The notes below the pieces were generated by a model that did no database searches, was not told where the DNA came from, and was given only the letters and a program-made list of their open reading frames with translations. From the NCBI GenBank assembly GCA_903885635.1, contig CAISJE010000078.1:1-39297 (forward strand): a DNA stretch of 39,297 nucleotides, written 5' to 3'. This DNA is from an uncultured bacterium (GTDB lineage Bacteria > Cyanobacteriota > Vampirovibrionia > Gastranaerophilales > Gastranaerophilaceae). Below, piece after piece: positions 6,814 through 34,824 of this stretch (position 1 is its first letter; the number at the start of each line of letters is the position of its first letter). The position numbers and the translations under genes were made by a program.

Positions 6814-6821
6814 GGGCAACA

Positions 6822-6864
6822 AAGAATTAAGACCGATTTGCTCCGCAAATCGGTCTTAATTCTT
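6822..6864 (-). terminator. terminator of the rpoB-rpoC1-rpoC2 operon
   Basis: A perfect 20-bp stem (6822-6841 with 6845-6864) and a 3-nt loop begin 19 nt after the rpoC2 stop codon. The T tract is short, but the stem is the strongest hairpin at a gene end in this window. It separates rpoC2 from rsmI. Confidence 0.8.
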
Positions 6865-6883
6865 TATATTGTATATTTTAATA

Positions 6884-9800
6884 TTACTCGATTGTTAAAT
6901 CAGGAGCACCGAACATTCCTTCAATTTCTTCCAAAATTGCAGAAGGCTTTCTTGCTTGATTTCTCGCAGCAGCACGTCTCAATGCTTCTCTGTCTTTTTC
7001 TTCACTCGCATTTGTCAAGTGGTGATATCCAGTACCAGCAGGGATTAAACGACCGATGATAACGTTTTCTTTCAATCCTCTTAGTAAGTCTTTCTTCCCC
7101 TCAACAGCAGCTTCCGTAAGGATTCTTGTCGTTTCTTGGAATGACGCGGCTGAGATGAAACTTTCAGTATTCAAACTCGCCTTGGTAATACCAAGCAATA
7201 AATGCTCACATTCAGCCCCAACAAGTCCTGCTTCTTTTGCCAATTTATTTTCAGCTTCAAACTGCTGAATTTCAACAAGTTCACCCTGTAATAATTTTGT
7301 ATCCCCAGGCTCAAGAACTTTTACCTTCTTAGTCATTTGTCTTACAATTATTTCAACGTGCTTATCGGCGATTTCAACCCCTTGAGAACGATATACTCTT
7401 TGTACCTCATCCACCAAGTACTGTTGTGCCGCCTCAGGACCTTTTAATCTGATTACGTCATGAGGGTTCAAAGGTCCGCTTGTGATTGGTTGACCTTTTG
7501 TTATTTTTTGCTTGTCTGCAACAATAATATTTGAATCGATTGCATATTTAATTTCGGTTCTGCCGTTTTCACTAACCAAATATAATCTAGGCATATCATC
7601 CTCGATTTCAATTTCAGCAACACCATCAAATTCAGCCAAAATAGAACATTCTTTCGGTTTTCTTCCTTCCAAAAGTTCCTCAACTCTCGGCAAACCCTGA
7701 ACGATATCACCGGTTTTTTGTCTTTCAAATACCAACGTAGCAAGCATATCACCTCTTAATACAAGAGCTCCTGAATCTACCTGTAACATTGTACCCGGAG
7801 ATATTAAATAAGGACGTCCCGTTCTGATAACAACTTCCGTTTTGGATACTTTAAGAACTTGTCCTGAAACAGTTGTTTTTTCGCCACTTTCAGCAACAAT
7901 TGAATCCAGTCTGATAAAATCACCTTCTTTTACACAAGCTTTTGCTTTGATAGGTAATTTAATTTCATAACTATCACAAATTAACAATAATCTTCTTGCC
8001 TCAGATTTGTCATTTTTAATCGAAGCCACACTATCGTGGATAGCAAGAACTTGAGTTTTTGCAACAGGCGTTTTAGGCTTAATTATCTGTCCGTGTTTTA
8101 CCAATAATTCAGTTTGAAGTGAAGAAGATAACTTAGAGCTGCCTTCAATTTCACGACGGACAATTAATGTTTCCAACACAACTACTTTTAAATGATTTTT
8201 GCTGTCTAATTCAACCATGCCCTTAAGGTGAGATAAATACCCCTGCATTTGAAGAACTAAGCTTGTTCTTGTTAAAGTCGCACCGTCAAGATTTCTTACT
8301 CTTGCTCCATCTTTATATTGAAGTTGGGTTACAGGAACAATATCAATCAATTCGTCTGTTGTATCAAATTTTATAGAAACATCTTTTTGTTGTATATTCA
8401 AAATTTGAACAGGTCTAACCAAAATCTGGATTGGTTGATTTGCAATATGTTCCTCGTCAACGGATAAACTCGCGTCTAAATCTTCATCCAAATCATCTAT
8501 GTTCAAATCATCTATATCCGATTCCATAATAGTTACAATAGAAGTCTCTTTCGCCTTAACCCCAGCGGCAATTACAGTACCTTTTTGGACGATTTCGCCT
8601 TCTTCAACTTTTAATTCACTGACACTTGACAGAGAATGGATTTCCCCCGGTCTGATTGTAATTTCATGGATAATATCATTACATTCTTTCAATTCAACGA
8701 TACCGTCGATATGACAATAGATGTCTTTAACAACTTCTGTTCCTGCAACAACGAATGTTCCGGATTCAACCATTTTTAAACCTGAATCCTTGCTTATTTG
8801 ATGAATTTCTTCAGGAACAAACACAACATTACCTGTTTTTGTAATAATCTGATTTTCATCAACTTCTACATCCACATATCTGATTTCACCGCTCGATTGA
8901 ACTGAACATTCATCATCGATTAATTCGGCAATAATCATTCCATTTTCGACGGTTGTATCAACAGGAGATTTTACAATATATTTTTCGCCTGTTTCATCGA
9001 CAACCCAAAGTTGTTCTTTTTTAGTTTGTTCAAATTTTGCATTCGAAGGCATTAAAGAAGCGATTACGATTGTAAGCTCTTTACCTTGAACAATTTTCTT
9101 AATTTTCTTTCCTTCAAATTGAACATCGTCAATGATTAAATCTTCGCCAACTCTAACCTCACCGCCATGTTCTGATATTGTTAAAGTTTCAGCAAGCTTA
9201 TCACCTTTTGAAAGTTTTTGTTCATCTTTAACAAGAACTTTAGAACCACCCGGCAAATTATAAACATCTCCACCCAAAACCCAAACAATTCCGTTTTTAT
9301 TAGATGTTCTTGAAATGTTCCCTTGTCTGTCTTTCTTTTCATCTGCGATAAAATCTTCGAACAAAACTTCCCCTGACAAATCAGCAGTAATATCTTTTGT
9401 TGCCTTTTCTGTTAAACGGCTACCCTCACCTTGGCTACCAGGTTCAAAATCGGCTAAAATTTCGCCTTTTTTAATACTCATTCCGTTTGTAACCAAAATT
9501 CTTGACCCTGCAGGAATGTGGTATTTTGTAGAGCCTTTTGAAGTCTTAACTTCCATATCAGCTTCATAAGTCGCAACCTGTACAACATCCCCGTGTCTTG
9601 TTCTCAATTCACGAGACTTAATCTTAGAAACAATTTCACCTGCTTCTTTAGCAATAATTCGTTTAGTCGCAGCAGCCCCCTTGAATACACCGCCTGTGTG
9701 GAACGTTCTCATTGTTAGCTGTGTTCCGGGTTCACCGATTGATTGTGCCGCAATAATACCGATTGCTTCGCCGACATCAACCATTTTTTGAGTCGTCATA

Positions 9801-10726
9801 GCCCATCCGTAACATTTTTGGCAAACCCCGTATTCTAAACCGCATGTCAAACCTGAACGAACATTCAACTCATTTAAGTCTAACTTCGCAACTTTTTTGA
9901 CATCCTCTCTGTCAAGAGTTGTTCCTGATTTGATTAAAACTTTTCCGTCTTCACCGATAATATCTTCGGCAATAGTTCTTCCCAACAATCTATCTGAAAG
10001 AGGGACAATATTTTTTTCACCGTCAGAAATGGATTTCATTCTGATACATTTGTCAGTATGACAATCAACATCTCTAATGATAACATCTTGAGCAACGTCA
10101 ACCAAACGTCTTGTCAAATAACCTGAATCGGCTGTTTTTAACGCTGTATCTACAAGCCCTTTTCTCGCACCGTATGAGGAGATGATATATTCCGTAACGG
10201 ATAAACCTTCTTTAAAGTTTGATTTAATCGGTAAATCGATGATTTGCCCCTGCGCATCTGCCATCAAACCACGCATCCCAACCAATTGCGATACCTGTGA
10301 AAGATTCCCTCTCGCTCCGGAAAAAGCCATCATGTATACAGGGTTTAATTTATCAAAATTCTTAACTACACACTCTGTCAACTTGGAAGTTGTTTCAGAC
10401 CAAGTGTCGATAACCTTTGTATATCTTTCAACTTCTGTAATTTCACCTTTTAAATATCTGTGAGTAGATTTATCAATTTCAGCTTCTGCCTGTCTTAATA
10501 AATCTTTTTTATCGGGAGGAACTTCTAAATCAGCAATCGAAATTGTTGTACCGGCTTTGGTAGCATATTTATATCCCAAGTTTTTAAGGCTGTTAGCCAA
10601 AGTCGCTGTTTTCGCACCGCCAAATTCAAGATATATTTGCAATAAAAGATTATTCAAAGATTTTTTATCAATAATCTTGTTGATATAATCCAAAGATTTT
10701 TTTGTATTTTTATACTTTGTTTCCAT
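6884..10726 (-). CDS. rpoC2: RNA polymerase beta-prime subunit, C-terminal part (cyanobacterial-type RpoC2)
   Basis: Carries the C-terminal part of beta-prime, separate from rpoC1 as in Cyanobacteria and plastids. Visible are SGARGN (136-141), the second zinc site (Cys222, Cys295, Cys302, Cys305), AAQSIGEPGTQLTMRTFHTGG (326-346) leading into the trigger-loop region, and TGDIVQGLPRVEELLEGRKP (1005-1024). About 658 residues lie between HTGG and TGDI, against roughly 200 in Escherichia coli; this is the size of the cyanobacterial SI3 insertion. It consists of repeated beta-rich (sandwich-barrel-like) modules. GAGG lies about 8 nt before the ATG. It follows rpoC1 after a 177-nt spacer containing a dispersed repeat. 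Confidence 0.97.
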   Translation of the reverse strand: METKYKNTKKSLDYINKIIDKKSLNNLLLQIYLEFGGAKTATLANSLKNLGYKYATKAGTTISIADLEVPPDKKDLLRQAEAEIDKSTHRYLKGEITEVERYTKVIDTWSETTSKLTECVVKNFDKLNPVYMMAFSGARGNLSQVSQLVGMRGLMADAQGQIIDLPIKSNFKEGLSVTEYIISSYGARKGLVDTALKTADSGYLTRRLVDVAQDVIIRDVDCHTDKCIRMKSISDGEKNIVPLSDRLLGRTIAEDIIGEDGKVLIKSGTTLDREDVKKVAKLDLNELNVRSGLTCGLEYGVCQKCYGWAMTTQKMVDVGEAIGIIAAQSIGEPGTQLTMRTFHTGGVFKGAAATKRIIAKEAGEIVSKIKSRELRTRHGDVVQVATYEADMEVKTSKGSTKYHIPAGSRILVTNGMSIKKGEILADFEPGSQGEGSRLTEKATKDITADLSGEVLFEDFIADEKKDRQGNISRTSNKNGIVWVLGGDVYNLPGGSKVLVKDEQKLSKGDKLAETLTISEHGGEVRVGEDLIIDDVQFEGKKIKKIVQGKELTIVIASLMPSNAKFEQTKKEQLWVVDETGEKYIVKSPVDTTVENGMIIAELIDDECSVQSSGEIRYVDVEVDENQIITKTGNVVFVPEEIHQISKDSGLKMVESGTFVVAGTEVVKDIYCHIDGIVELKECNDIIHEITIRPGEIHSLSSVSELKVEEGEIVQKGTVIAAGVKAKETSIVTIMESDIDDLNIDDLDEDLDASLSVDEEHIANQPIQILVRPVQILNIQQKDVSIKFDTTDELIDIVPVTQLQYKDGARVRNLDGATLTRTSLVLQMQGYLSHLKGMVELDSKNHLKVVVLETLIVRREIEGSSKLSSSLQTELLVKHGQIIKPKTPVAKTQVLAIHDSVASIKNDKSEARRLLLICDSYEIKLPIKAKACVKEGDFIRLDSIVAESGEKTTVSGQVLKVSKTEVVIRTGRPYLISPGTMLQVDSGALVLRGDMLATLVFERQKTGDIVQGLPRVEELLEGRKPKECSILAEFDGVAEIEIEDDMPRLYLVSENGRTEIKYAIDSNIIVADKQKITKGQPITSGPLNPHDVIRLKGPEAAQQYLVDEVQRVYRSQGVEIADKHVEIIVRQMTKKVKVLEPGDTKLLQGELVEIQQFEAENKLAKEAGLVGAECEHLLLGITKASLNTESFISAASFQETTRILTEAAVEGKKDLLRGLKENVIIGRLIPAGTGYHHLTNASEEKDREALRRAAARNQARKPSAILEEIEGMFGAPDLTIE

Positions 10727-10784
10727 TTTTTCAACCTCAACACGAAATTTTTGAAATTCCGCCTTTACTAACTCTATTGTTTTA

Positions 10785-10890
10785 CTACTAACTTTTTCGA
10801 TTTGTCGGCTTACCAGCCTAATTGCACTCGGGCATTGTTTCGTTGACCCTCAATTATTTTGACTTCCCGCTCGCATCTCCTTTGCTTGGA
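10785..10890. repeat. dispersed repeat inside the rpo operon (rpoC1-rpoC2 spacer)
   Basis: Positions 10785-10830 align with 34881-34925 (about 85% by eye: CTACTAACTTTTTCG..., ending ATTGCACTCG). Positions 10868-10886 (CGCTCGCATCTCCTTTGCT) are identical to 35050-35068. The two outer modules are thus shared with the element upstream of flhB, while the inner part differs in length (37 versus 124 nt). It explains the unusually long spacer between two subunit genes of one operon. Confidence 0.75.
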
Positions 10891-10903
10891 AGCCCTTCAC
10901 TTC

Positions 10904-12616
10904 TCAGCCTAATACCGCTTCTCTAACAGCTTCGTTGAATAGAATTCTGCCAACGGTGGTTTCAATTCTTTCGTTCTGTTCATCCCTTACGATAATTTTA
11001 TCGTGAAGCTTTATAACCCCAACTTCTAAAGCAGAAATGGCATCTCTAAAATTAAAGAAATATCCCTTAATCGGTTCTTCTTCATTTTTCAATATAGTCA
11101 AGTAATACATACCCAAAACCATATCCTGAGAAGGAGTGATAATCGGTTTCCCTGTCGCAGGAGCCAAAATATTGTTAGTGGCAAGCATTAACATTCTTGC
11201 TTCAGTTTGAGCTTCGATTGACAAAGGAACGTGAACGGCCATTTGGTCACCGTCGAAATCGGCGTTAAACGCTGTACAAACAAGTGGATGCAACTGGATT
11301 GCTCTACCTTCTACCAAAACCGGCTCAAATGCTTGAATACCAAGTCTGTGCAAGGTTGGTGCACGGTTTAACATAACCGGATGTCCGTCAATGACTTCTT
11401 CCAAAATATCCCAAACAATTGCCTCGGAACGCTCGATTTTCTTTTTCGCAGATTTAATGTTTTGTACATACCCGCGTTCGATTAATTTATTTACGACAAA
11501 CGGCTTGAATAATTCAATCGCCATTTCTTTCGGCAAACCGCACTGGTTTAAGCTTAATTGAGGTCCGACTACGATAACCGAACGTCCTGAATAATCAACA
11601 CGTTTTCCTAACAAATTCTGTCTGAAACGACCCTGCTTACCTTCAATAATATTTGAAAGTGATTTTAAAGGTCTGTTATTTGGACCAACGACTGTTCTTC
11701 CACGTCTTCCGTTATCGATTAAAGCGTCCACCGCTTCTTGTAACATTCTTTTTTCGTTTCTCACGATAATTTCAGGTGCACCCATTTCCAATAATCTTGC
11801 TAAACGATTGTTTCTGTTGATTACACGTCTGTACAAATCGTTTAAATCAGATGTTGCAAATCTTCCACCGTCTAACTGGACCATAGGTCTTAAATCAGGA
11901 GGAGTTACAGGCAATACATCCATTATCATCCAAGTCGGTTCTGTGTCGCTTGAAATTAGAGAATCAAGCAGTCTCAATTTCTTAATCAACTTACTTTTTC
12001 TTTGAACCGAACCTATAGGACCTTCAAGTTCTTTTCTGATATCTTCGGCAATTTCTTTTATATTAAGTTCTGCGAGCAAATCTTTAATCGCTTCGGCACC
12101 TATTCCAACTTTTAATCCGGATTCTTCATTTTCTGTTAAATAGTCTTCATAATCTTCCTCACCAAGAAGTTGGAATTTTTTGAACGTGCTTTCAGCAGGC
12201 TCCATTACAATATAATTATTGAAGTAAATAACTTGTTCCAAGTCTTTCAAAGATATATCCAACAACAATCCCAAATAGCTTGGAATACCTTTTAAAAACC
12301 AAATATGGCTGACAGGCGCAGCAAGCTTAATGTGACCCATACGGTGTCTACGCACTTTTGAATCAGTGACCTCAACGCCGCATCTTTCGCAGATAATACC
12401 CTTGTGTCTTACTCTTTTATATTTTCCGCAATAACATTCCCAGTCCTTTGACGGCCCGAAAATTCTTTCGCAGAACAAACCGTCACGCTCAGGTTTAAGC
12501 GTACGATAATTTATGGTTTCAGGTTTTGTTACCTCACCGTAAGACCATTTCATAACTCTTTCGGGTGAAGCTATACTAACCCTTATATAATCAAAATAAT
12601 CAATACTTGTAGACAA
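10904..12616 (-). CDS. rpoC1: RNA polymerase gamma / N-terminal beta-prime subunit (RpoC1)
   Basis: N-terminal part of beta-prime with the catalytic centre. The zinc site is Cys61, Cys63, Cys76, Cys79 (CYCGKY...CERCG). The Mg-binding NADFDGDQM motif is at about 449-457, and [15 protein letters not shown] precedes it. The protein ends at [10 protein letters not shown], where cyanobacterial RpoC1 proteins also end, and RpoC2 starts separately, so the split is genuine and not a frameshift. The start codon is TTG, preceded by AAGGAG at 7 nt. It lies 112 nt after rpoB. Confidence 0.97.
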
Positions 12617-12728: not shown

Positions 12729-15700
12729 TTATAGTTCGCCAAATGTTGCAGGTGTCTCAAAGAAGTTGATATTCAACAACTCTGAATCGATATCCGATAA
12801 AGTTCTTTTTGGAGCGGATTTTCTTAAATCGTCCAAATCACTCATTAAGTCAACTTCTATGCCATCTTTTTTGGCAACGGTAATGTCCAAACCGATACTT
12901 TGCAATTCTCTTACAAGTACCTTGAATGACTCAGGAATTCCCGGTCTTGGAATGTTATCACCCTTAACAATAGCTTCATAAGCTCTGTTTCTTCCGTTAA
13001 CGTCATCTGATTTAATCGTAAGCATTTCCTGTAAAGTATAAGCCGCGCCGTAAGCTTCAAGTGCCCAAACTTCCATCTCACCGAATCTTTGACCACCGAA
13101 TTGAGCTTTACCGCCCAACGGTTGTTGAGTTACAAGTGAATAAGGACCTGTGCTTCTCGCGTGGATTTTATCATCAACAAGGTGGACAAGTTTCAAGATG
13201 TAAGAAACACCGACTGCAACTGGCTGATCAAAGGCTTCGCCCGTTCTTCCGTCAAGCAGCATCACTTTTCCGTCTTCTCTAACCCAGTCACAACCTGATT
13301 CTTTAATCCCTTTCAAAAGCTCTGCCTTTGTAGCGATTTCGGACTGATTGTCGCCATACATTTCATCAAACGGAGGCGCTTCATAGTAATTCCCTGTTAA
13401 ATAAGAAGCTAAGCCAAGTAAACATTCATAAGTCTGTCCAACGTTCATCCGTGAAGGAACCCCAAGAGGATTCAATACGATATCAACAGGCGTTCCGTCC
13501 GGCAAGAAAGGCATATCATTTTTAGGTAAAATTCTTGAAACGATACCTTTGTTTCCATGACGACCTGAAAGTTTATCACCTACAGAAACTTTACGTTTTT
13601 GAGCGATATAAACTCTGATTACAGTGTTCGCGCCCGGTGGTAATTCGTCACCCTTTTCTCTGTCAAATACCTTAACGTCAAGTACTCTGCCGCCTTCGCC
13701 GTGAGGAACACGTAAGGAATTATCTTTTACATCTCTTGCTTTTTCGGCAAAGATTGCTCTTAACAATTTTTCTTCAGGCGGGTGTTCAGATTCCCCTTTC
13801 GGAGTAACTTTACCGACCAAAATATCATCAGCATAAACTCTTGCCCCTATTCTTACAATCCCTCTTTCGTCCAAATGTCTTAAAGACTCTTCTGAAACGT
13901 TAGGTATTTCTCTTGTAATTTCTTCAGGTCCGAGTTTTGTTTGTCTTGCATCTATTTCTAATTTTTCAATGTGAACAGATGTAAAAATATCATCATGAAC
14001 GCATCTTTCAGAAAGCAAAATCGCATCCTCAAAGTTATAACCTTCCCAAGGCATATAAGCCAAAAGAACGTTTTTACCAAGTGATAAATCTCCGCAACTT
14101 GTAGACGCCCCGTCTGCTATTACATCGCCTGCTCTAAGCACATCACCTTCTCTTACAATCGGTCTTTGGTTGATACAAGTATCTTGGTTACTTCTCAAAT
14201 ATTTTACAAGCTGATGAATATGGAGCTTGCCTGCTTTATCTTTAATAGTAACTTCTTCGCCAACAACTCTTTCAACAGTACCGTCAACAGCCGCAACCGC
14301 TACCATACCTGAATCTTTTGCCGCTCTGGCTTCCAGACCTGTTCCGACAACCGGTCTTTGGGTTATTAACAATGGCACAGCCTGACGTTGCATGTTTGAA
14401 CCCATCAACGCTCTGTTTGCGTCATCGTGCTCAATGAACGGAATTAAAGATGTTGCAACAGAGATAATCTGAATAGGTGAAACACCCATATAGTCAACTT
14501 TTGTCGATTCACCCATCGTAAATTCTGAACGATAACGAACAGGAACATATTCGTGTTTTATGCTTTTTGTATTTTTATTTAACTGAATATCAGAAGGTGC
14601 AATACGGTAATTTTCTTCTTCATCTGCTGATAAATAGTGAACCTCATCCGTTACAATCCCATCTGTTACAACGAAGAACGGGGATTCAATAAATCCGTAA
14701 TCATTAACCTTCGCATGAGTAGCCAAAGAGCCTATCAAACCAGCGTTTGGACCTTCAGGAGTTTCAACCGGACAAATTCTTCCGTAGTGTGAAGGGTGAA
14801 TATCACGAACCGCAAAGCCCGCTCTTTCTCTCATCAAGCCACCGGGTCCTAAAGCTGAAATTCTTCTCTTGTGAGTTAATTCGGCAAGCGGATTAGTTTG
14901 GTCCATAAACTGTGATAATTGCGAAGAACCAAAGAATTCTTTCAAAGACGCAATCAAAGGTTTTGTGTTTAAAAGATTTAAAGGTGTTAAAGTTTCTGAA
15001 TCTTGAAGAGTCATTCTTTCTTTAACAATTCTTTCAATTCTTGATAAACCCACTCTGAACTGGTTTTGAAGCAATTCGCCCACTGAACGGATTCTTCTGT
15101 TTCCTAAGTGGTCGATATCATCAATCGTTCCTTCATCATAAGTTAAATTAATCAAATATTCTATTGAAGCCACGATATCTTGAACCGTCAAAGTTCTTTG
15201 AGAATTTTGAACGTTCAAATTAAGTTTTTTGTTTAACTTATAACGACCAACTCTTCCGATATCATATTTTTTCTCATCAAAGAATCTTGCTTCCAAAATT
15301 GAACGTCCACCTTGAGGAGATGCAGGATCGCCCGGTCTCAATTTTTTATAAACTTCAACTAAAGCATCATCCGTAGTCTCTGAGGTATCTTTTTCAAGAG
15401 TTCTTTTCAAAAATTCTGAGTGGGTAAACAATGTTTCCATTTCAGAAACCGTAATCCCCATTGCTTTCAACAAAGTTGTAGCGAGGATTTTTCTATTTTT
15501 ATCAATCTTAACGTAAACCAAATCATTAGAATCAGTTTCGATTTTTAACCATGCTCCGCGGTTAGGAATTAAAGTTGCGTTGTACAAACGTTTTCCCGTC
15601 GGAGAAACTTCTCTTTTGAAATAAACTCCCGGAGAACGAACGATTTGAGAAACGATTACACGTTCCGCGCCGTTCACGATAAATGTCCCTTTATCAGTCA

Positions 15701-16151: not shown

Positions 16152-16351
16152 TCGTACTACTTCAATAATCATAGTCAAGAAGAATTTGTATTATTTAAAA
16201 TTTAAACACACAATTCGTTACAATCGGTCGTTTTGCGGGATTAAGAAACGCTAAAAACATTGCCAATTGTTGCTTTGCCTGTCAAGTGGGGAAAATAAAT
16301 AAAATCGACCGTATTTTTTTGTATATCCATTATTTGTAAACGAATGTAACG

Positions 16352-16385
16352 AAAGTATATACTTTGCGCAATTAAGTATATACTT
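16352..16385. promoter_or_regulatory. paired palindromic operators upstream of the 130-aa gene
   Basis: Two copies of the self-complementary sequence AAGTATATACTT lie at 16353-16364 and 16374-16385, with centres 21 bp apart, about two helical turns. Together they form a larger inverted repeat with 17-nt arms (16348-16364 and 16374-16390). This looks like a double site for a dimeric repressor. The second copy would overlap the -35 area if TATATA (16397-16402) is the -10 of the downstream gene. Confidence 0.6.
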
Positions 16386-16431
16386 TCGTTTTTATTTATA
16401 TATGTGTACTTAAAATAGAGGTAAAATAAAC

Positions 16432-16824
16432 ATGTCTTACGCAGGTATTCAAGCAACAGTTAATTTTTATACAATGAGAGAAGCAGATCTTACGAATGAA
16501 TTGTCTGATATAATGACGAGTATAACGCAAGCAAGCGGTCAAACAATCAACCTTGTAACATCAACAAACGACCAAAAAAGCGTCATAAGAAACTCTGCCG
16601 CCCCTGATTCTACCGAATATAAAACTCAAATGGATCAAATTAGTGGTCAATATGAGGTTAAATTGGCACAAATAACAGATTGGGAAAGTCAACTGGAAAC
16701 AAGAAAACAAGCTCTTGAAACAGAAATTCAGGCAACTACCTCATACAAGGAAAGTTTCAAGACAGCCTTAAAACAAAATATCCAAAGCGATTATAAATAC
16801 GGCGGTGGCGCAGCTACTAAATAA
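16432..16824 (+). CDS. 130-aa helical (coiled-coil) protein, function unknown
   Basis: No family recognised. The protein is almost entirely helical, polar and without cysteine: residues 14-40 and 66-115 have heptad-like patterns, separated by a Ser/Thr/Asn-rich linker, and the C-terminus is YGGGAATK. There is no signal peptide. Small helical, cysteine-free proteins of this kind are seen among flagellar and type III secretion substrates, and flhB is in the window, but that link is inference. AGAGG lies 10 nt before the ATG. The gene is monocistronic, with a strong terminator and a double operator upstream, suggesting tight regulation. Confidence 0.75.
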   Translation: MSYAGIQATVNFYTMREADLTNELSDIMTSITQASGQTINLVTSTNDQKSVIRNSAAPDSTEYKTQMDQISGQYEVKLAQITDWESQLETRKQALETEIQATTSYKESFKTALKQNIQSDYKYGGGAATK

Positions 16825-16845
16825 AAAGATAAAGGATACAAAGAC

Positions 16846-16871
16846 AAAAAAGAGGCAATTGCCTCTTTTTT
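16846..16871 (+). terminator. terminator of the 130-aa gene
   Basis: A 26-nt perfect palindrome (AAAAAAGAGGCAATTGCCTC then T6) 21 nt after the stop codon. It lies immediately before the -10 of the next gene (16876-16881). Confidence 0.85.
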
Positions 16872-16887
16872 GGTTTATAATTGCTCT

Positions 16888-17895
16888 ATGATAAAAAATA
16901 ATTTTAAAAATAATAAATTAGGGGCGTTTATTGTCCCGACAGGAATTGGGGCTTCAATCGGCGGATATGCAGGAGATGCAAGCACTTGGGCAAGAAGATT
17001 TGCCCAACACGCAGCCATGATTGTAAATCCCAATGTCGTAAACGCGGGTGCATTTTCAGGGATTACCCCAAATATGCTTTATGTTGAGGGTTATGCTTTA
17101 GACGAATTTTTCAAGGGCAAGGTGAATTTACAGCCATCGATAAAAAATAAAATCGGTGTGATTTTTGACAAGGGAATTTCTCAAAATGTCTTAAATATTC
17201 ATTTGAACACGATAAATGCGGTAAAAACAGTTTACGATATAGATATAATCTATGAAATTACCCCCGAGGCCGTAGAGGTTATTTTTTTTGTGGATAATTC
17301 CGGCATCTCTACAGGAAAAGTAAAAAATATTGAAACTCTTTTGTGCACTGCCAAAAATCTTTTGCAAAAAGGCGCCAATGCAATTGCCGTAGTTTGTAAA
17401 TTTAATGAAGCCAATCAACAAAATCACGAATATGAGAATGGACTTGGTGTTGACCCGATAGGCGGAGTTGAGGCGATAATTTCGCATTACCTGTCAAAAG
17501 AATTAAAAATCCCTGTAGCTCATGCTCCTGCGTTTGAAGATTTTTCGATTTCGACAAAAATAGTCGACCCGAAATCGAGTGCGGAGTATATTACGCCTAC
17601 ATTTTTACCTTGTATTTTAATCGGCTTAAATCAGGCACCTTTAATATCAAACTCAAAAAATGCAATAAAAATAGCCGATTTGGATTTTCTCGTAATGCCC
17701 CACAATGCTCTGGGCTCTACTCCCGTATTTGAAGCAATTAAGAGAGGGATAAAAGTTTTTGCGGTTAGGGAAAATCACTCGGTTTTAAATGTTACAAAAA
17801 AAGCTTTGGCTATTGATAATGTGATAGAAGTGGATACTTACGAAGAGTGCTTGGAGCTTGTAAAAAAATTATCTTGTGAAACAATCTATTGTTAA
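16888..17895 (+). CDS. DUF3326 family protein
   Basis: The N-terminal VPTGIGASIGGYAGDASTWA (16-35 of the ATG form), NPNVVNAG, NMLYVEGYALDEFF and IGVIFDKGI match my knowledge of DUF3326, a family of unknown function common in cyanobacteria and plants. The C-terminal half contains GVDPIGGVEAIISHYLS and LVMPHNALGSTPVFEAI, which look like ligand-binding glycine-rich loops. No reaction can be named. The ATG at 16888 is chosen because TATAAT (16876-16881) ends 6 nt before it; an in-frame TTG at 16870 would start upstream of that -10. No Shine-Dalgarno site is seen. The 3' end overlaps the convergent rsmD gene by 27 bp. Confidence 0.78.
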   Translation: MIKNNFKNNKLGAFIVPTGIGASIGGYAGDASTWARRFAQHAAMIVNPNVVNAGAFSGITPNMLYVEGYALDEFFKGKVNLQPSIKNKIGVIFDKGISQNVLNIHLNTINAVKTVYDIDIIYEITPEAVEVIFFVDNSGISTGKVKNIETLLCTAKNLLQKGANAIAVVCKFNEANQQNHEYENGLGVDPIGGVEAIISHYLSKELKIPVAHAPAFEDFSISTKIVDPKSSAEYITPTFLPCILIGLNQAPLISNSKNAIKIADLDFLVMPHNALGSTPVFEAIKRGIKVFAVRENHSVLNVTKKALAIDNVIEVDTYEECLELVKKLSCETIYC

Positions 17896-18502: not shown

Positions 18503-18706
18503 TTAATTATTGCTTAATACAAGTCTAAAAGTCGCCAAATTTTTAATAGACAACATTCTATGTTTATTGTGTTGCGCTTCAGATATATTAAATATTCTAA
18601 CCATACGTTGAATTTCTTCAACATCTTTTCTTGAGTTGAATGTATATACATTACAGATTGGATCTGAGACTACTGACATTAGGGTATTTAATTCTTGTTC
18701 TTTCAT
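18503..18706 (-). CDS. small 67-aa protein, function unknown
   Basis: The frame is open further upstream (to 18829), but the ATG at 18706 has a GAGGA site 5 nt ahead and the upstream extension is unlike a real N-terminus. Residues 30-60 (DVEEIQRMVRIFNISEAQHNKHRML) could form a helix-turn-helix-like pair of helices, but I cannot assign a family. No signal peptide or membrane segment. It is divergent from the BlaI-like repressor operon and may share its control region. Confidence 0.6.
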   Translation of the reverse strand: MKEQELNTLMSVVSDPICNVYTFNSRKDVEEIQRMVRIFNISEAQHNKHRMLSIKNLATFRLVLSNN

Positions 18707-18829
18707 AGCTTCCTCATAAAATATTATATATATTAATAAAAACAATCGTACTAAAATAATTGCCTTTTTTGTTAGTAATTGTAAAGAAATACTGCGAAAT
18801 TTCATATCTACTTCACCATTCGCCCCCAC

Positions 18830-18900: not shown

Positions 18901-19242
18901 ATGGTTTATGGCATCCTTGAAATAGAAATTATGAACGCCATTTGGCAACTGCAAGAACAGAATGAAGACGCAAATATCTCGGTTGCAGACATTGTTAAAA
19001 CTTTGAATAATAACGATATAGAAAGAGCTTACACAACAATCAAAACTGTTATGGATAGATTAGACTCAAAGGGAGTTTTAGTCAGATATAGAAGTGGGAA
19101 AAAATTCTTTTACAGAAGCACCATTGATAAAAATGAAGCTTCAAAAAAAGCTGTAGAAGAAATTTTAAACCAGTTTTTTGAAGGAAATTACGTCCATCTG
19201 TTAAGGTTTATAGAAAAAGAAGCAGAAAACCTTCCGGTGTAA
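18901..19242 (+). CDS. BlaI/MecI/CopY-family transcriptional repressor
   Basis: 113-aa winged-helix repressor. The N-terminus (LEIEIMNAIWQLQ), SVADIVKTL, AYTTIKTVMDRLDSKGVLVRYR (43-64, recognition helix and wing) and FFYRSTI match the family. The C-terminal dimerisation helix with the usual cleavage region is short. No BlaR1/MecR1 (M56) sensor or beta-lactamase lies nearby, so the inducer is unknown. GGAG lies 10 nt before the ATG, and a dyad overlaps the promoter. It is the first gene of a three-gene run with the 123-aa protein and the TadE-like protein, implying that it controls a pilus- or envelope-related operon. Confidence 0.85.
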   Translation: MVYGILEIEIMNAIWQLQEQNEDANISVADIVKTLNNNDIERAYTTIKTVMDRLDSKGVLVRYRSGKKFFYRSTIDKNEASKKAVEEILNQFFEGNYVHLLRFIEKEAENLPV

Positions 19243-31820: not shown

Positions 31821-32522
31821 ATGAATATAAAAAAAATCACCGACATAATCGAAAATTTTGCACCGCTTGAATTGCAGGAGTCTTGGGATTGTTCTGGCTT
31901 TTTGGTGGATTTGGGCGAAAAAGACGTAAATAAAATTCTTCTTTGCCTTAGTGTTACGGAAAAAATTGTCAATCAGGCGGTGGAAAATAATTGCGATATG
32001 ATAATCGCTCATCATCCTTTGTTTAGCATGCCTGTGGCGTTTAATAAAGGGATTTCGATTTATTCTGCTCATACGAATTTAGATAAAGCTGAAGGTGGAA
32101 CAACCGACACGTTAATCGAGTTACTTGGTTTTGGTAAGGCGCAAAAAATCGGAGATTTTTTGCGCCTTACCGACTTACAGGCAGAAATAACATTGAACAG
32201 TTTTATTCAACTTTTAAAAGAAAAACTTAACCTTCAACATATTCGTGTCGTAAATAATTTCGACAAACAAAAAGTCAAAAAAATAGCTTTTTGTGCTGGA
32301 AGCGGGGCGGACTTTTTAAGTGAAGCCCAAAGCGTAAATGCCGACATCATTGTAACGGGAGATGTAAAGTATCATTGCGCATTAGATAGTGATGTTATAA
32401 TAATAGATATAGGGCATTTTGAAAGCGAATATCCTGTTTTAGTAAAAATTGAAAAGTTATTACAACCATTAAATTTAGAGGTGTTGATTGCGGATGAAAA
32501 AAGTCCTTTTATTATTTATTAG
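31821..32522 (+). CDS. NIF3/YbgI family dinuclear metal protein
   Basis: 233 aa, slightly shorter than the usual 250. Metal-binding motifs: AHHPLF (His64, His65), SAHTNLD (His84, Asp88) and GHFESE near the C-terminus. The family forms a toroidal hexamer with two metals per subunit. It has been linked to GTP cyclohydrolase I type 2 activity, but its true role is unsettled. It directly follows the RHH gene (7-nt gap) and overlaps the secreted-protein gene by 29 bp. A perfect 18-bp inverted repeat lies inside the coding region. Confidence 0.9.
   Translation: MNIKKITDIIENFAPLELQESWDCSGFLVDLGEKDVNKILLCLSVTEKIVNQAVENNCDMIIAHHPLFSMPVAFNKGISIYSAHTNLDKAEGGTTDTLIELLGFGKAQKIGDFLRLTDLQAEITLNSFIQLLKEKLNLQHIRVVNNFDKQKVKKIAFCAGSGADFLSEAQSVNADIIVTGDVKYHCALDSDVIIIDIGHFESEYPVLVKIEKLLQPLNLEVLIADEKSPFIIY
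32133..32171 (+). repeat. 18-bp perfect hairpin inside nif3
   Basis: GGTAAGGCGCAAAAAATC (32133-32150), loop GGA, and GATTTTTTGCGCCTTACC (32154-32171). It encodes GKAQKIGDFLRLT in frame. A by-eye alignment with E. coli YbgI needs no insertion here, so it does not look like an inserted coding palindrome. Confidence 0.85.
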
Positions 32523-33045: not shown

Positions 33046-33708
33046 TTAATAATCGTACTGTTCTTTTGTCTGTAAATATTCCCTGATGCTATTCAAGGAG
33101 GATTGGACAATTCTGGTAATCCTTGAGGAGGAAAGCCCAACCTGTCTTGCGATATCTTTTACCTGCATGTTTCTGTAAAATCTATACTCAACTATTGTTC
33201 TATCTTTTTGAGGTAAAGTAGAAATTGCCTCTCTAATCATTCTGCCCATTTCAGTTATTTCTGCCTTTTCATCAGGCATCGCCGACATGTCTTTAAGAAA
33301 GTCAAACGGGGAATCGTTGTCCGAAGAAGCCGCTGCTAAGCTATCAATGGAAAGAATTGTTTCATAAATAGCCTCCCTGACTTTGCCGGGTGAAATATCC
33401 AATCCTTCAGCATCTTCAATGTTTCCGTCGGTACTTTCTTCGGATTTTGTGTGCTTAAGCGAGTACCATTTGTAACGATTTCTTAACTCATTTCGAATCG
33501 CCCATCTCACCGCGGTACCAATGTAGGCCGAATTATATTTTTCAAGTTGTTCAGGCGTTTTGTTTTTAACCATTGATTGCACTGCAATAATGCCTATGCT
33601 TACCAGTTCTTCATACTCAATCATGTGAGACGGAATACGATGATGCTCAACCTTGGCAACTTTTTGTATTATATCTAAGTATTCTTTAATTTTTGATTTT
33701 TCTTGCAT
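33046..33708 (-). CDS. sigma-28 (FliA/WhiG)-type RNA polymerase sigma factor
   Basis: 220 aa. Region 2: RIPSHMIEYEELVSIGIIAV (24-43) and YIGTAVRWAIRNELRNRYKW. Region 3 (about 100-140) is poorly conserved and includes a Ser/Asp-rich insert (AAASSDNDSPFDFLKD). Region 4: AISTLPQKDRTIVEYRFYRN then VKDIARQVGLSSSRITRIVQ. The pattern fits FliA-like factors more than stress sigma factors. It begins 12 nt after the flhB stop codon, so the two are in one operon, which supports a flagellar or type III secretion role. No anti-sigma factor is seen. Confidence 0.82.
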   Translation of the reverse strand: MQEKSKIKEYLDIIQKVAKVEHHRIPSHMIEYEELVSIGIIAVQSMVKNKTPEQLEKYNSAYIGTAVRWAIRNELRNRYKWYSLKHTKSEESTDGNIEDAEGLDISPGKVREAIYETILSIDSLAAASSDNDSPFDFLKDMSAMPDEKAEITEMGRMIREAISTLPQKDRTIVEYRFYRNMQVKDIARQVGLSSSRITRIVQSSLNSIREYLQTKEQYDY

Positions 33709-33720
33709 TGTCGTGTTTAT

Positions 33721-34824
33721 TTAGTTCTCTCTCTCTTGCTCTGTCTTGTTTTCTATTCTACCTTGAGTTTGATTATTTTTCAAGTTATATACAAAAAGTA
33801 AAATTTCAGCAACCGCTTTGTATAAATCAGGAGGGATTAATTGGTTCAGTTCCACCATTCGAAATAAAGCCCTTGCAACAGGCGGATTGTCTATTATCGG
33901 AATCCCATTTTCCTGTGCTATTTTTATGATTTTTTTCGCTATAAGTTCTGTCCCTTTTGCAATAAGCATGGGCGATTCCATCTCTTGTGCAACATATTTT
34001 AATGCACAGGCAACGTGAGTCGGGTTGCGTACTACAAAATCTGCTGTAGCCGTAGCATCCATCATGCTTCGTTGTAACATTTGCATCCGTCGTTGACGAA
34101 GTGCAGCCTTTACATTCGGGTCACCTTCGGTGTTTTTGTATTCGTCTTTGATTTCCTTAAAGGACATTTTCTGATCCTTCATAAATTTCCAACGAGTAAC
34201 CATGTAATCAGCGCCCGCAATAACCAAAAATGCAATACAGGCTTTAAACACAAATTCTACTATCAGTTTTCCGAATTCAATCATAACCGCAAAATTATTG
34301 TCAATAGAAGCCAGTCTCAAAATACTTTCGATATGCGCCGAATAAACACTCCAACCAATCCAGCCTAAAATTATTACTTTCATAATATTTTTCAATAATT
34401 CAAATAACGTTTTCACCGACATTATATTTTTAAAGTATTTTGTCGGATTAAGTTTATCAAGCTTAGGCACTAGCGGTGCAGTTGAAACCAAAGGTCCAAC
34501 CTGTATAAAATCCGCCAAAATAGCAACAAGCCAAGCAATAAATAATACAGGCGCAATGATTAAAAACAACGCAACAATAGTTATAGTAAAAATATAAGGA
34601 AGCCCAATGTCGTTTAAATGCTGGTTCGGAATCTGTTCATAACACAGCACAAAAAGCTTTGTTATCTGATCCCAAATAAACGGCGCAAGTGCATAAATCG
34701 CAGAAAACAAAATAAGCAACGAAAGGGCTGTTGAAAAATCCTTTGATTTAACAACCTGACCTTCTTTTTTTGCCTGCTCGAGTTTTCGAGGCGTGGCATC
34801 AAACTGTTTATCTTCATCACCCAT
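33721..34824 (-). CDS. flhB: FlhB/SctU family export-switch protein
   Basis: 367 aa. The cytosolic start FDATPRKLEQAKKEGQVVKS (8-27) is classical, and four transmembrane helices lie at about 31-52, 78-105, 145-165 and 186-206. The C-terminal domain has the autocleavage motif NPTH (267-270), at almost the same position as in E. coli FlhB, followed by VACALKY. It controls the substrate switch of the flagellar export apparatus. A non-flagellar type III homologue (SctU) is possible, but pairing with a FliA-like sigma factor favours flagella. No other flagellar gene is present in the window. Confidence 0.9.
   Translation of the reverse strand: MGDEDKQFDATPRKLEQAKKEGQVVKSKDFSTALSLLILFSAIYALAPFIWDQITKLFVLCYEQIPNQHLNDIGLPYIFTITIVALFLIIAPVLFIAWLVAILADFIQVGPLVSTAPLVPKLDKLNPTKYFKNIMSVKTLFELLKNIMKVIILGWIGWSVYSAHIESILRLASIDNNFAVMIEFGKLIVEFVFKACIAFLVIAGADYMVTRWKFMKDQKMSFKEIKDEYKNTEGDPNVKAALRQRRMQMLQRSMMDATATADFVVRNPTHVACALKYVAQEMESPMLIAKGTELIAKKIIKIAQENGIPIIDNPPVARALFRMVELNQLIPPDLYKAVAEILLFVYNLKNNQTQGRIENKTEQEREN

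What the first reader, a model, noticed from the sequence alone, without database searches (positions are those of the whole stretch)
16348..16431. Double palindromic operator spaced two helical turns apart before an unknown helical protein
AAGTATATACTT occurs twice with centres 21 bp apart and together forms a 17-bp-arm inverted repeat. The downstream 130-aa coiled-coil gene is monocistronic with a strong terminator. This is the best-defined repressor site in the window, yet its regulator is unknown.
Basis: seen in the sequence. Interest (0 to 1): 0.5.

Follow-up and report, generated by a model that had tools for sequence, protein, structure and literature searches.

The report
Composite promoter with paired palindromes
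Two identical DNA palindromes sit inside a larger, strongly conserved promoter that many non-photosynthetic relatives of cyanobacteria use for a group of unknown small proteins, possibly ones sent out of the cell by a second, flagellum-type secretion machine.

Summary
In detail: AAGTATATACTT at 16353-16364 and 16374-16385, centres 21 bp apart, inside a perfect 17-bp-arm inverted repeat. The exact pair is unique in the genome and kept in the two nearest orthologs. Gastranaerophilales: an HLR1-like 10-bp direct repeat (16333-16350, perfect match to the cyanobacterial RpaB consensus), a (T/C)G(A/C)AAT(T/C) element lying between the palindromes, then, after 16 bp, a TTTATATA-like element. A model built without the palindrome bearers picks this spot out of the window. 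The promoter occurs 3-21 times in each of 22 genomes, before mostly signal-less helical or Ser/Asn-rich proteins; ten representatives are unknown to Pfam. The 130-aa protein is a predicted helical hairpin. The window also encodes a second FlhB plus a FliA-type sigma; all 43 relatives tested have the matching second FlhA, flagellated or not. GTATATAC in the upstream gap recurs in two more promoters of the same genome, so the palindromes are probably operators of an unknown dimeric regulator; repression is likelier than activation. Sense, regulator, sigma and export are inferred.

The parts
16333..16350 (+). HLR1-like direct repeat TTTGTAAACGAATGTAAC (10-bp pitch), putative OmpR/RpaB-type activator box
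   Evidence: perfect match to the reverse complement of the HLR1 consensus, only perfect match in the window; same box in regulon sites
16348..16390 (.). 17-bp-arm inverted repeat, loop 9, containing both palindromes
16353..16364 (.). palindrome 1 AAGTATATACTT, in the gap between the HLR1-like box and the -35-like element
   Evidence: kept in L003/L081 (one substitution) and L004/L082
16366..16373 (+). GCGCAATT, the window's form of the conserved (T/C)G(A/C)AAT(T/C) -35-like element
   Evidence: box scan places it here with the usual 16-bp downstream gap and one extra base upstream; R1 alignment
16374..16385 (.). palindrome 2 AAGTATATACTT, between the -35-like and -10-like elements
16390..16404 (+). 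TTTTATTTATATATG, predicted -10-like region
   Evidence: box 3 of the promoter class; R1 match 16332-16406
16417..16422 (+). Shine-Dalgarno-like AGAGGT
   Evidence: sequence
16432..16824 (+). 130-aa helical-hairpin protein, candidate export substrate (inference)
   Evidence: ORF; AF2 helices 3-55 and 61-124, mean pLDDT 88.9; homologs
16845..16872 (.). terminator-like hairpin, called on both strands
33046..33708 (-). FliA/WhiG-type sigma factor, candidate sigma of the regulon (inference)
   Evidence: NCBIfam TIGR02479 E 6.9e-22, 78 bits, below its cut-off of 189.6; ortholog at 67% identity or more in 41 of 43 genomes
33721..34824 (-). FlhB of the second export apparatus, adjacent to the sigma gene
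   Evidence: PF01312; next to the sigma in 12 of 12 loci, own included; 35.5% identical to the other FlhB of the same genome

Best explanation
The site is the control region of one gene of an order-wide regulon. An OmpR-family (RpaB-like) response regulator binds the HLR1-like repeat at 16333-16350 and helps RNA polymerase start at a core promoter made of the GCAATT element (16366-16373) and the TTTATATA-like element 16 bp downstream (16390-16404). The polymerase may carry the FliA-type sigma encoded beside flhB in this window. In the clade of the window species, a dimeric regulator of unknown identity binds the two AAGTATATACTT palindromes, two helical turns apart on either side of the -35-like element, and most likely blocks polymerase. 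The product is a helical-hairpin protein that is probably exported by the second flagellar-type apparatus. Shown: palindromes, composite promoter, its recurrence, conservation, existence of the second apparatus genes. Inferred: which protein binds each element, repression, sigma, export.
For: Composite promoter: 78 of 81 ortholog upstreams score over 12 with one ungapped 79-base profile (iterated on them) whose end lies 10-24 bp before the start codon; R1, built without the window, L081 or L082, hits 16332-16406 at 20.2 bits, E 1.7e-5, next best 9.4, and E 6.8e-4 against the genome; box scan 34.4 against at most 15.6 in 3.9 Mb of mononucleotide-shuffled sequence. Strict pattern: 21 hits against 0 reversed-control hits in 8 genomes (7 with a hit), 19 of 21 of the same length. 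R2, partly trained on these, finds 3-21 sites in each of 22 genomes at E<=1e-4. HLR1: window perfect, 39 of 167 class sites perfect, 58 with one mismatch, repeat offset peak at 10 bp; consensus from passages of PMC11633204. Palindromes: exact GTATATAC in gap 1 of 5 of 205 sites (expected 0.1) and gap 2 of 20 (0.1), both 2 (0.00); 14 of 30 sites of five genomes against 2 of 137 others in gap 1. Products: 0 of 67 with an N-terminal hydrophobic stretch against 31% of 141 other ORFs. Second apparatus.
Against: No transcription start, binding or expression data. The exact pair stands before this gene in only 3 genomes; the other 78 ortholog upstreams do without it. The five genomes were grouped after seeing the hits, and G078 and G319 entered through a palindrome search. 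GTATATAC is often part of the -10 region in sister promoters (30 of 205 sites at offset 9, up to one mismatch), so it may be core-promoter sequence rather than an operator. The RpaB-like regulator scores 206 bits, below the curated 330 and level with MtrA at 205.6. No site scoring 20 or more lies in the 149 kb of export-apparatus, sigma and flagellin loci rescanned; one at 19.5 does (L199:14287). The g12 ortholog is divergent from a flagellar motor operon motA-motB-fliL-fliM, a link to the ordinary flagellum rather than the second apparatus. Regulon and second apparatus are both present in every genome searched for both, so co-occurrence does not discriminate. The class boxes were used to find the sites, so spacing and box statistics are partly circular.
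Confidence: 0.5

Rival explanations
1. The palindromes are the site of an activator, for example a MerR-like protein that binds between badly spaced -35 and -10 elements and untwists the promoter.
For: Palindrome 2 lies between the -35-like and -10-like elements, whose spacing (TGAAAT-N18-TTTATA) is at the long end for a sigma70-type promoter (the norm is recalled).
Against: 199 of 205 class sites have the same gap (scan penalised other gaps) while only 6 have GTATATAC within one mismatch in both gaps, so the spacing does not require the palindromes; two palindromes, one upstream of -35, are not the MerR layout (recalled).
Confidence: 0.15
2. GTATATAC is not an operator but a core-promoter or flexible-DNA element read by sigma or polymerase; the perfect pair is an accident of duplication of this element.
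For: GTATATA-CTTTATATA is a frequent form of the -10 region (30 of 205 sites at offset 9).
Against: In the window both copies stand at other positions, are perfect 12-mers, and are kept 24 of 24 between genera; gap-1 copies are rare outside five genomes, 2 of 137 (post hoc grouping).
Confidence: 0.25
3. The inverted repeat acts as RNA: a 5'-UTR hairpin or a terminator.
For: A strong hairpin can form: -23.1 kcal/mol for 16330-16435, z -3.0, followed by T-rich DNA.
Against: Only 4 of 17 stem pairs are G-C; the -10-like element lies downstream of it, so it should not be transcribed; the terminator scan did not call it; 78 of 81 ortholog upstreams lack the pair; the stretch 16396-16480 is unstructured, z +1.4.
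Confidence: 0.05
4. The regulon has nothing to do with the second export apparatus; the products are cytoplasmic helical proteins, or serve the ordinary flagellum.
For: No class site of score 20 or more in the apparatus loci rescanned; the g12 ortholog stands beside motA-motB-fliL-fliM; helical hairpins are common and PDB matches are generic, best E 0.09.
Against: No N-terminal hydrophobic stretch in 67 products (2 have a membrane-like stretch elsewhere) and Ser/Thr/Asn/Gln-rich starts; sigma-flhB pairing; of 23 genomes in the set that carry the gene at E<1e-8, 17 have no flagellin, which speaks against a role in the ordinary flagellum.
Confidence: 0.3

Closest known systems
RpaB / HLR1 promoters of cyanobacteria
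   Same: 18-mer direct repeat with 10-bp pitch, same consensus; RpaB activates when bound about 50-100 nt upstream of the start (PMC11633204, passages)
   Different: host order is described as non-photosynthetic; targets are unknown helical proteins, not photosynthesis genes; regulator orthology below curated cut-off
Tandem-palindrome repressor operators (lambda/BlaI type, recalled)
   Same: two identical dyads two helical turns apart flanking the -35-like element
   Different: regulator unknown; limited to one clade; superposed on an activator-type promoter
FliA-dependent late flagellar/T3SS genes (recalled)
   Same: FliA-type sigma next to flhB; substrate-like genes carry the promoter, the structural loci rescanned do not at score 20 or more
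   Different: promoter is not TAAAGTTT-N11-GCCGATAA (recalled); products are not flagellins
Partial flagellar gene sets of Gastranaerophilales (PMC4040986, PMC5877343, passages)
   Same: flagellar genes kept in members judged non-motile were noted before
   Different: here part of them resolved as a separate export gate (FlhA, FlhB, FliP, FliE-FliF-FliH, rod-like proteins) present in flagellin-positive genomes too, beside the flagellar one

Membership tests
HLR1/RpaB-type promoter | match to (G/T)TTACA(T/A)(T/A)NN(G/T)TTACA(T/A)(T/A) | tested here: met
   window 16333-16350 perfect on the reverse strand; 39 of 167 sites perfect, 58 one, 61 two, 6 three, 3 four mismatches; background 7 exact in 0.51 Mb of fetched loci (both strands, class sites not removed), 0 in 0.76 Mb shuffled
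HLR1/RpaB-type promoter | RpaB present in the genome | tested here: inconclusive
   OmpR-family regulator 3.3 kb from class-B flhA: best NCBIfam model RpaB, 206 bits, cut-off 330; MtrA 205.6. The genome was not searched for a better candidate
HLR1/RpaB-type promoter | regulator binds the site | not testable with these tools
   needs EMSA or footprint
dimeric-repressor operator | dyad symmetry beyond chance | tested here: met
   two other long inverted repeats exist in the window
dimeric-repressor operator | overlaps core promoter | tested here: met
   flanks the element at 16366-16373
dimeric-repressor operator | conserved in orthologs | tested here: inconclusive
   kept in the 2 nearest, absent from the 78 others (at least 7 of 24 mismatches)
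dimeric-repressor operator | further sites or autoregulated regulator in the genome | tested here: inconclusive
   no second pair, single sites not enriched; gap-1 element in 3 of 6 G000 promoters of the class, window included; no regulator gene found
sigma28 (FliA) promoter | TAAAGTTT-N11-GCCGATAA (recalled) | tested here: not met
   core is (T/C)G(A/C)AAT(T/C)-N16-(C/T)TTTATATA
type III export substrate | no Sec signal or membrane segment | tested here: met
   0 of 67 products with an N-terminal hydrophobic stretch; 2 of 67 with a membrane-like stretch elsewhere (hydropathy only)
type III export substrate | apparatus-dependent secretion | not testable with these tools
   experiment needed
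known protein family (Pfam) | match above curated cut-off | tested here: not met
   window protein and 10 regulon representatives
T3SS needle/rod/translocator fold | significant structural match | tested here: inconclusive
   helical hairpin; IpaB 74-242 and YscO among generic coiled coils, best E of any match 0.09; Z 11-12 shared by unrelated coiled coils
intrinsic terminator / RNA element | G+C-rich transcribed stem plus T run | tested here: not met
   4 of 17 pairs G-C; not called by the scan that called 16845-16872; lies upstream of the -10-like element

The most novel reading that the evidence does not exclude
Ca. Gastranaerophilales carry, besides or instead of a flagellum, a second hook-less flagellar-type secretion machine with its own FlhA, FlhB, FliP, FliE-FliF-FliH operon and FliA-type sigma, feeding a regulon of unknown helical substrates (the window protein being a minimal, hairpin-only one) whose promoters are read by a cyanobacterial RpaB-type response regulator repurposed from light control; the paired palindromes add a clade-specific second switch.
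Probability: 0.4. Interest if true: 0.85.

Novelty: new variant of a known kind. Interest (0 to 1): 0.6.

Why it matters
It turns an orphan palindrome into an entry point to a regulon. The promoter signature names, by sequence alone, a set of unknown proteins in a gut and environmental lineage next to the cyanobacteria, and may link them to a conserved export apparatus whose genes earlier work counted among incomplete flagella. If the RpaB link holds, it shows what this regulator does in cells without photosynthesis. The literature searches run here listed no title on a type III secretion system in this group; only titles and abstract starts were seen, apart from passages of seven papers.

Tried and rejected
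Exact-pair search in the own genome: none beyond the window's. Pair pattern with up to 3 mismatches in 383 family genomes: 14 genomes hit, 10 by the reversed control; only G000, G015, G011 (this gene) and G078 (another gene) looked meaningful on reading eight of the loci.

RNA hairpin/terminator reading: rejected because the -10-like element lies downstream and 78 of 81 ortholog upstreams lack the pair.

BlaI-family repressor at 18901-19242 as the regulator: considered only for its nearness; not tested.

Flagellin promoters as members of the class: five flagellin upstreams read by eye (one with an uncertain start), none showed the TGTAAC/TGAAAT boxes.

Remote homology of the window family to three other regulon families: HHalign probability 25%, 35% and 2.5%, weak C-terminal similarity only for the first two. 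Structure search: best E 0.09; absence from the VIA list excludes nothing.

My first scan put zero penalty on the wrong gap length; repeated with the right one (which failed on saving after printing the window and shuffle scores; one search is the full run). The scan penalises unusual gaps and its boxes were learnt from sites found by a pattern, so the 199-of-205 gap count leans towards the usual spacing; the strict pattern allowed 9 by 11 gap lengths and still gave 19 of 21 hits of 51 bases. Dropped before counts: sites scoring under 28 (167 of 205 kept); one search used only ATG starts within 90 bp and collapsed products with the same first ten residues, so many of the 67 are still relatives of each other. 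Without G078 and G319 (own arithmetic) the gap-1 element is in 8 of 15 sites. One search listed apparatus loci from a list with duplicates removed; one search rescanned them directly (149 kb), which added the 19.5 site.

Full report
Observation. They are not chance: 0 of 60 first-order Markov copies of the window gave an inverted repeat with arms of 14 or more, and 0 of 100 a repeated 12-nt palindrome (three or more letters) 12-40 bp apart. The window holds two other inverted repeats with arms of 14 or more, at 6821-6865 and 32133-32171, with 3-nt loops. The two copies are the only exact ones in the 2.28-Mb genome, and no other pair exists with up to 3 mismatches.

Who it is. The nearest named matches are MAGs labelled uncultured bacterium Kiruna2_bin-1131 (96% identity) and Candidatus Gastranaerophilales STE_97 (57%); many of the 80 loci listed carry Gastranaerophilales labels. 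The rpoC gene is split in two ORFs, a cyanobacterial trait (recalled).

Orthologs. The 130-aa protein has matches in 133 of 191 family genomes at E<=0.001; the weakest may be chance coiled-coil hits. Of 81 upstream regions (80 named loci plus the window's own), 78 score over 12 with one ungapped 79-base profile: (A/T)TGTTAACAAATGTAACaAA, about 10 bases, TTGAAATC, 17-18 bases, TTTATATA, then the start codon 10-24 bases after the profile's end. The other three (L002 = window, L081, L082) are exactly the palindrome bearers: 0, 1 and 0 of 24 mismatches to the pair, against 7 or more in the other 78. They keep the same layout: HLR1-like box, palindrome, element 2 (GCGCAATT in the window and L081, CTGAAATT in L082), palindrome, -10-like element.

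Independent test. Model R1, built from 37 sites without those three, gives its best match in the window at 16332-16406 (20.2 bits, E 1.7e-5; runner-up 9.4 bits) and E 6.8e-4 against the whole genome. A three-box scan gives 34.4 for the site, 8.4 for the next in the window, and at most 15.6 in 3.9 Mb of mononucleotide-shuffled sequence. Against the other-genus ortholog, identity is 46 of 55 columns in the block -100 to -45, 31 of 48 from -45 to the start codon, and 49 of 89 and 36 of 77 further upstream; shuffled sequence gives 45%. The palindrome pair is identical, 24 of 24; the sister species has one substitution in palindrome 1.

Regulon. The strict pattern had 21 hits in 8 genomes (7 with a hit) against 0 for the reversed control. 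R2, trained partly on sites of these genomes and without a control run, found 3 to 21 sites at E<=1e-4 in each of 22 genomes. In the loci fetched by then, 205 unique sites score 20 or more: element 2 is TGAAA in 143, GCAAT in 54, other in 8; the gap to the -10-like box is 16 in 199; the gap upstream is 10 in 160 and 11 in 37, the longer gap going with GCAAT. These counts lean towards the usual spacing because the scan penalises other gaps. A fixed element-2/-10 distance with a slightly flexible upstream box is what a polymerase-bound core plus a separate activator would give (inference).

Upstream box. The cyanobacterial HLR1 consensus, read in passages of PMC11633204, is matched perfectly on the reverse strand at 16333-16350, the only perfect match in the window; two other places have one mismatch. 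Over 167 sites scoring 28 or more, mismatches are 0 in 39, 1 in 58, 2 in 61, 3 in 6, 4 in 3, and the upstream half-site peaks at a 10-bp offset (4.88 of 6 matches; next 3.30 at 9). An OmpR-family regulator lies 3.3 kb from class-B flhA in this genome; its best NCBIfam model is RpaB, but at 206 bits against a cut-off of 330 and level with MtrA. About 230 bp before it is a weak class-like site (19.5), and 67 bp before it an HLR1-like repeat with one mismatch. This is a lead, not an identification.

Palindromes within the regulon. Exact GTATATAC occurs in the upstream gap of 5 sites (expected 0.1) and the downstream gap of 20 (expected 0.1), in both of 2 (expected 0.00); with up to one mismatch 15, 39 and 6 against 1.2, 1.9 and 0.01 (200 mononucleotide shuffles of each gap). 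Most downstream ones abut the -10-like box (30 at offset 9), a position different from the window's. The upstream ones are concentrated in five genomes: 14 of 30 sites against 2 of 137 elsewhere. That grouping is post hoc, sites are not independent, and two of the five genomes came in by a palindrome search; in the three that did not, 8 of 15. In the window's genome 3 of 6 sites carry it: the window's, one before a 121-aa gene (C196), and one (C172) whose downstream gene is unclear. So the element is not private to this gene, though the perfect pair is.

Product. AlphaFold2 on 58 sequences predicts a two-helix hairpin (3-55, 61-124; mean pLDDT 88.9). Solved-structure matches are generic coiled coils, among them IpaB 74-242 and YscO, none significant. 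Pfam has no family above cut-off for it or for ten other regulon products; one shows a sub-threshold needle-family match, E 0.0033. Of 67 products, none has an N-terminal hydrophobic stretch, against 31% of 141 background ORFs; 2 have a membrane-like stretch elsewhere, against 37%; the first 25 residues hold 33% Ser/Thr/Asn/Gln against 19% (many are relatives of each other).

Second export apparatus. In 43 genomes FlhA falls into two groups by score: one in all 43 (one genome partial, one in two pieces), the other in 18, all among the 19 flagellin-positive genomes. In the window's genome the two are 37.5% identical. The universal group sits in an operon FliE-FliF-unknown-FliH-FlhA in the three genomes looked at, named by Pfam in G000 and by resemblance in G172 and G011, except FliE of G172, also by Pfam. 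FliP has one copy in 12 of 12 flagellin-negative and two full copies in 8 of 8 flagellin-positive genomes. In the same 12, rod/hook C-terminal domains occur only in frames up to 269 aa; frames of 448-578 aa, the size expected of hook and hook-associated proteins, occur only in the flagellin-positive ones. 'Hook-less' is inferred from this. The window's FlhB belongs to the universal set: in the 12 best sigma loci (own included) it adjoins the FliA-type sigma, 70-98% identical in the other 11, three of them from flagellin-negative genomes, while the FlhB next to class-A FlhA at C166 is 35.5% identical. The sigma has orthologs at 67% identity or more in 41 of 43 genomes, and a second FliA-like paralog (35-44%) occurs in 42 of 43.

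Link of gene and apparatus. Of 23 genomes in the 43-genome set that carry the gene at E<1e-8, 17 have no flagellin, so the gene does not follow the ordinary flagellum. Against this, the g12 ortholog stands divergent from motA-motB-fliL-fliM (Pfam), and no class site of score 20 or more lies in the apparatus loci rescanned.

Mechanism and limits. I take the site as a composite promoter with an RpaB-like activator box and, in this clade, a double operator that would cover the core element if bound. What binds, in which sense, and whether the product is exported are not shown. The sigma assignment rests only on the sigma-flhB pairing and the absence of this promoter from the five flagellin upstreams and the apparatus loci read here.

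Prior knowledge. PMC4040986 and PMC5877343 (passages) report partial flagellar gene sets in Gastranaerophilales and infer loss of flagella in some. PMC4451040 (passages) describes a type IV, not a type III, system in Vampirovibrio, and PMC9029806 (passages) lists flagella only; neither text holds 'type III'. PMC12199754 and PMC12403147 (passages) do not name the group. Searches listed no title on such a system or promoter here.

Noticed in passing
G000:C180:14233-16209 (L199) and C166:21620-23605 (L201): Two FlhA classes; one in 43 of 43 genomes, the other in 18, all flagellin-positive.
   Followed up: yes
L200:2112-3587 (-): A protein of about 490 aa holding only the C-terminal part of FlhA (PF00771 315-654); similar partial matches in 40 of 43 genomes by the listing.
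   Followed up: no
L199:7506-8474 (+): 323-aa protein between FliF and FliH of the class-B operon without a Pfam match (E<=0.01) or NCBIfam match (E<=1e-5).
   Followed up: no
L199:14285-14470 (+): Weak class-like promoter (19.5) and an HLR1-like repeat with one mismatch upstream of the RpaB-like regulator gene at 14520: possible autoregulation.
   Followed up: partly
window 6884-12616 (-): rpoC split into two genes as in cyanobacteria (trait recalled).
   Followed up: no
window 18901-19242 (+): BlaI/CopY-family repressor; upstream a weak HLR1-like half promoter (18767-18794) and ATGTATATACAT at 18640-18651.
   Followed up: partly
L196, L197 flagellin upstream regions: TAAACTTT...GATGATAA, sigma28-like by eye (consensus recalled), unlike the regulon promoter.
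   Followed up: partly
L178:1602-2537 and window 16432-16824: Several regulon products end in a similar short motif; some have a variable middle part between terminal helix-like stretches, reminiscent of axial proteins; similarity weak.
   Followed up: partly
L082:546-3981 (-): motA-motB-fliL-fliM operon divergent from the g12 ortholog.
   Followed up: yes
window 16870-17895 (+): DUF3326 gene downstream, also seen next to the gene in several fetched loci (by resemblance in the loci).
   Followed up: no
window 6821-6865 and 32133-32171: Two further long inverted repeats (arms 21 and 18, loop 3).
   Followed up: no
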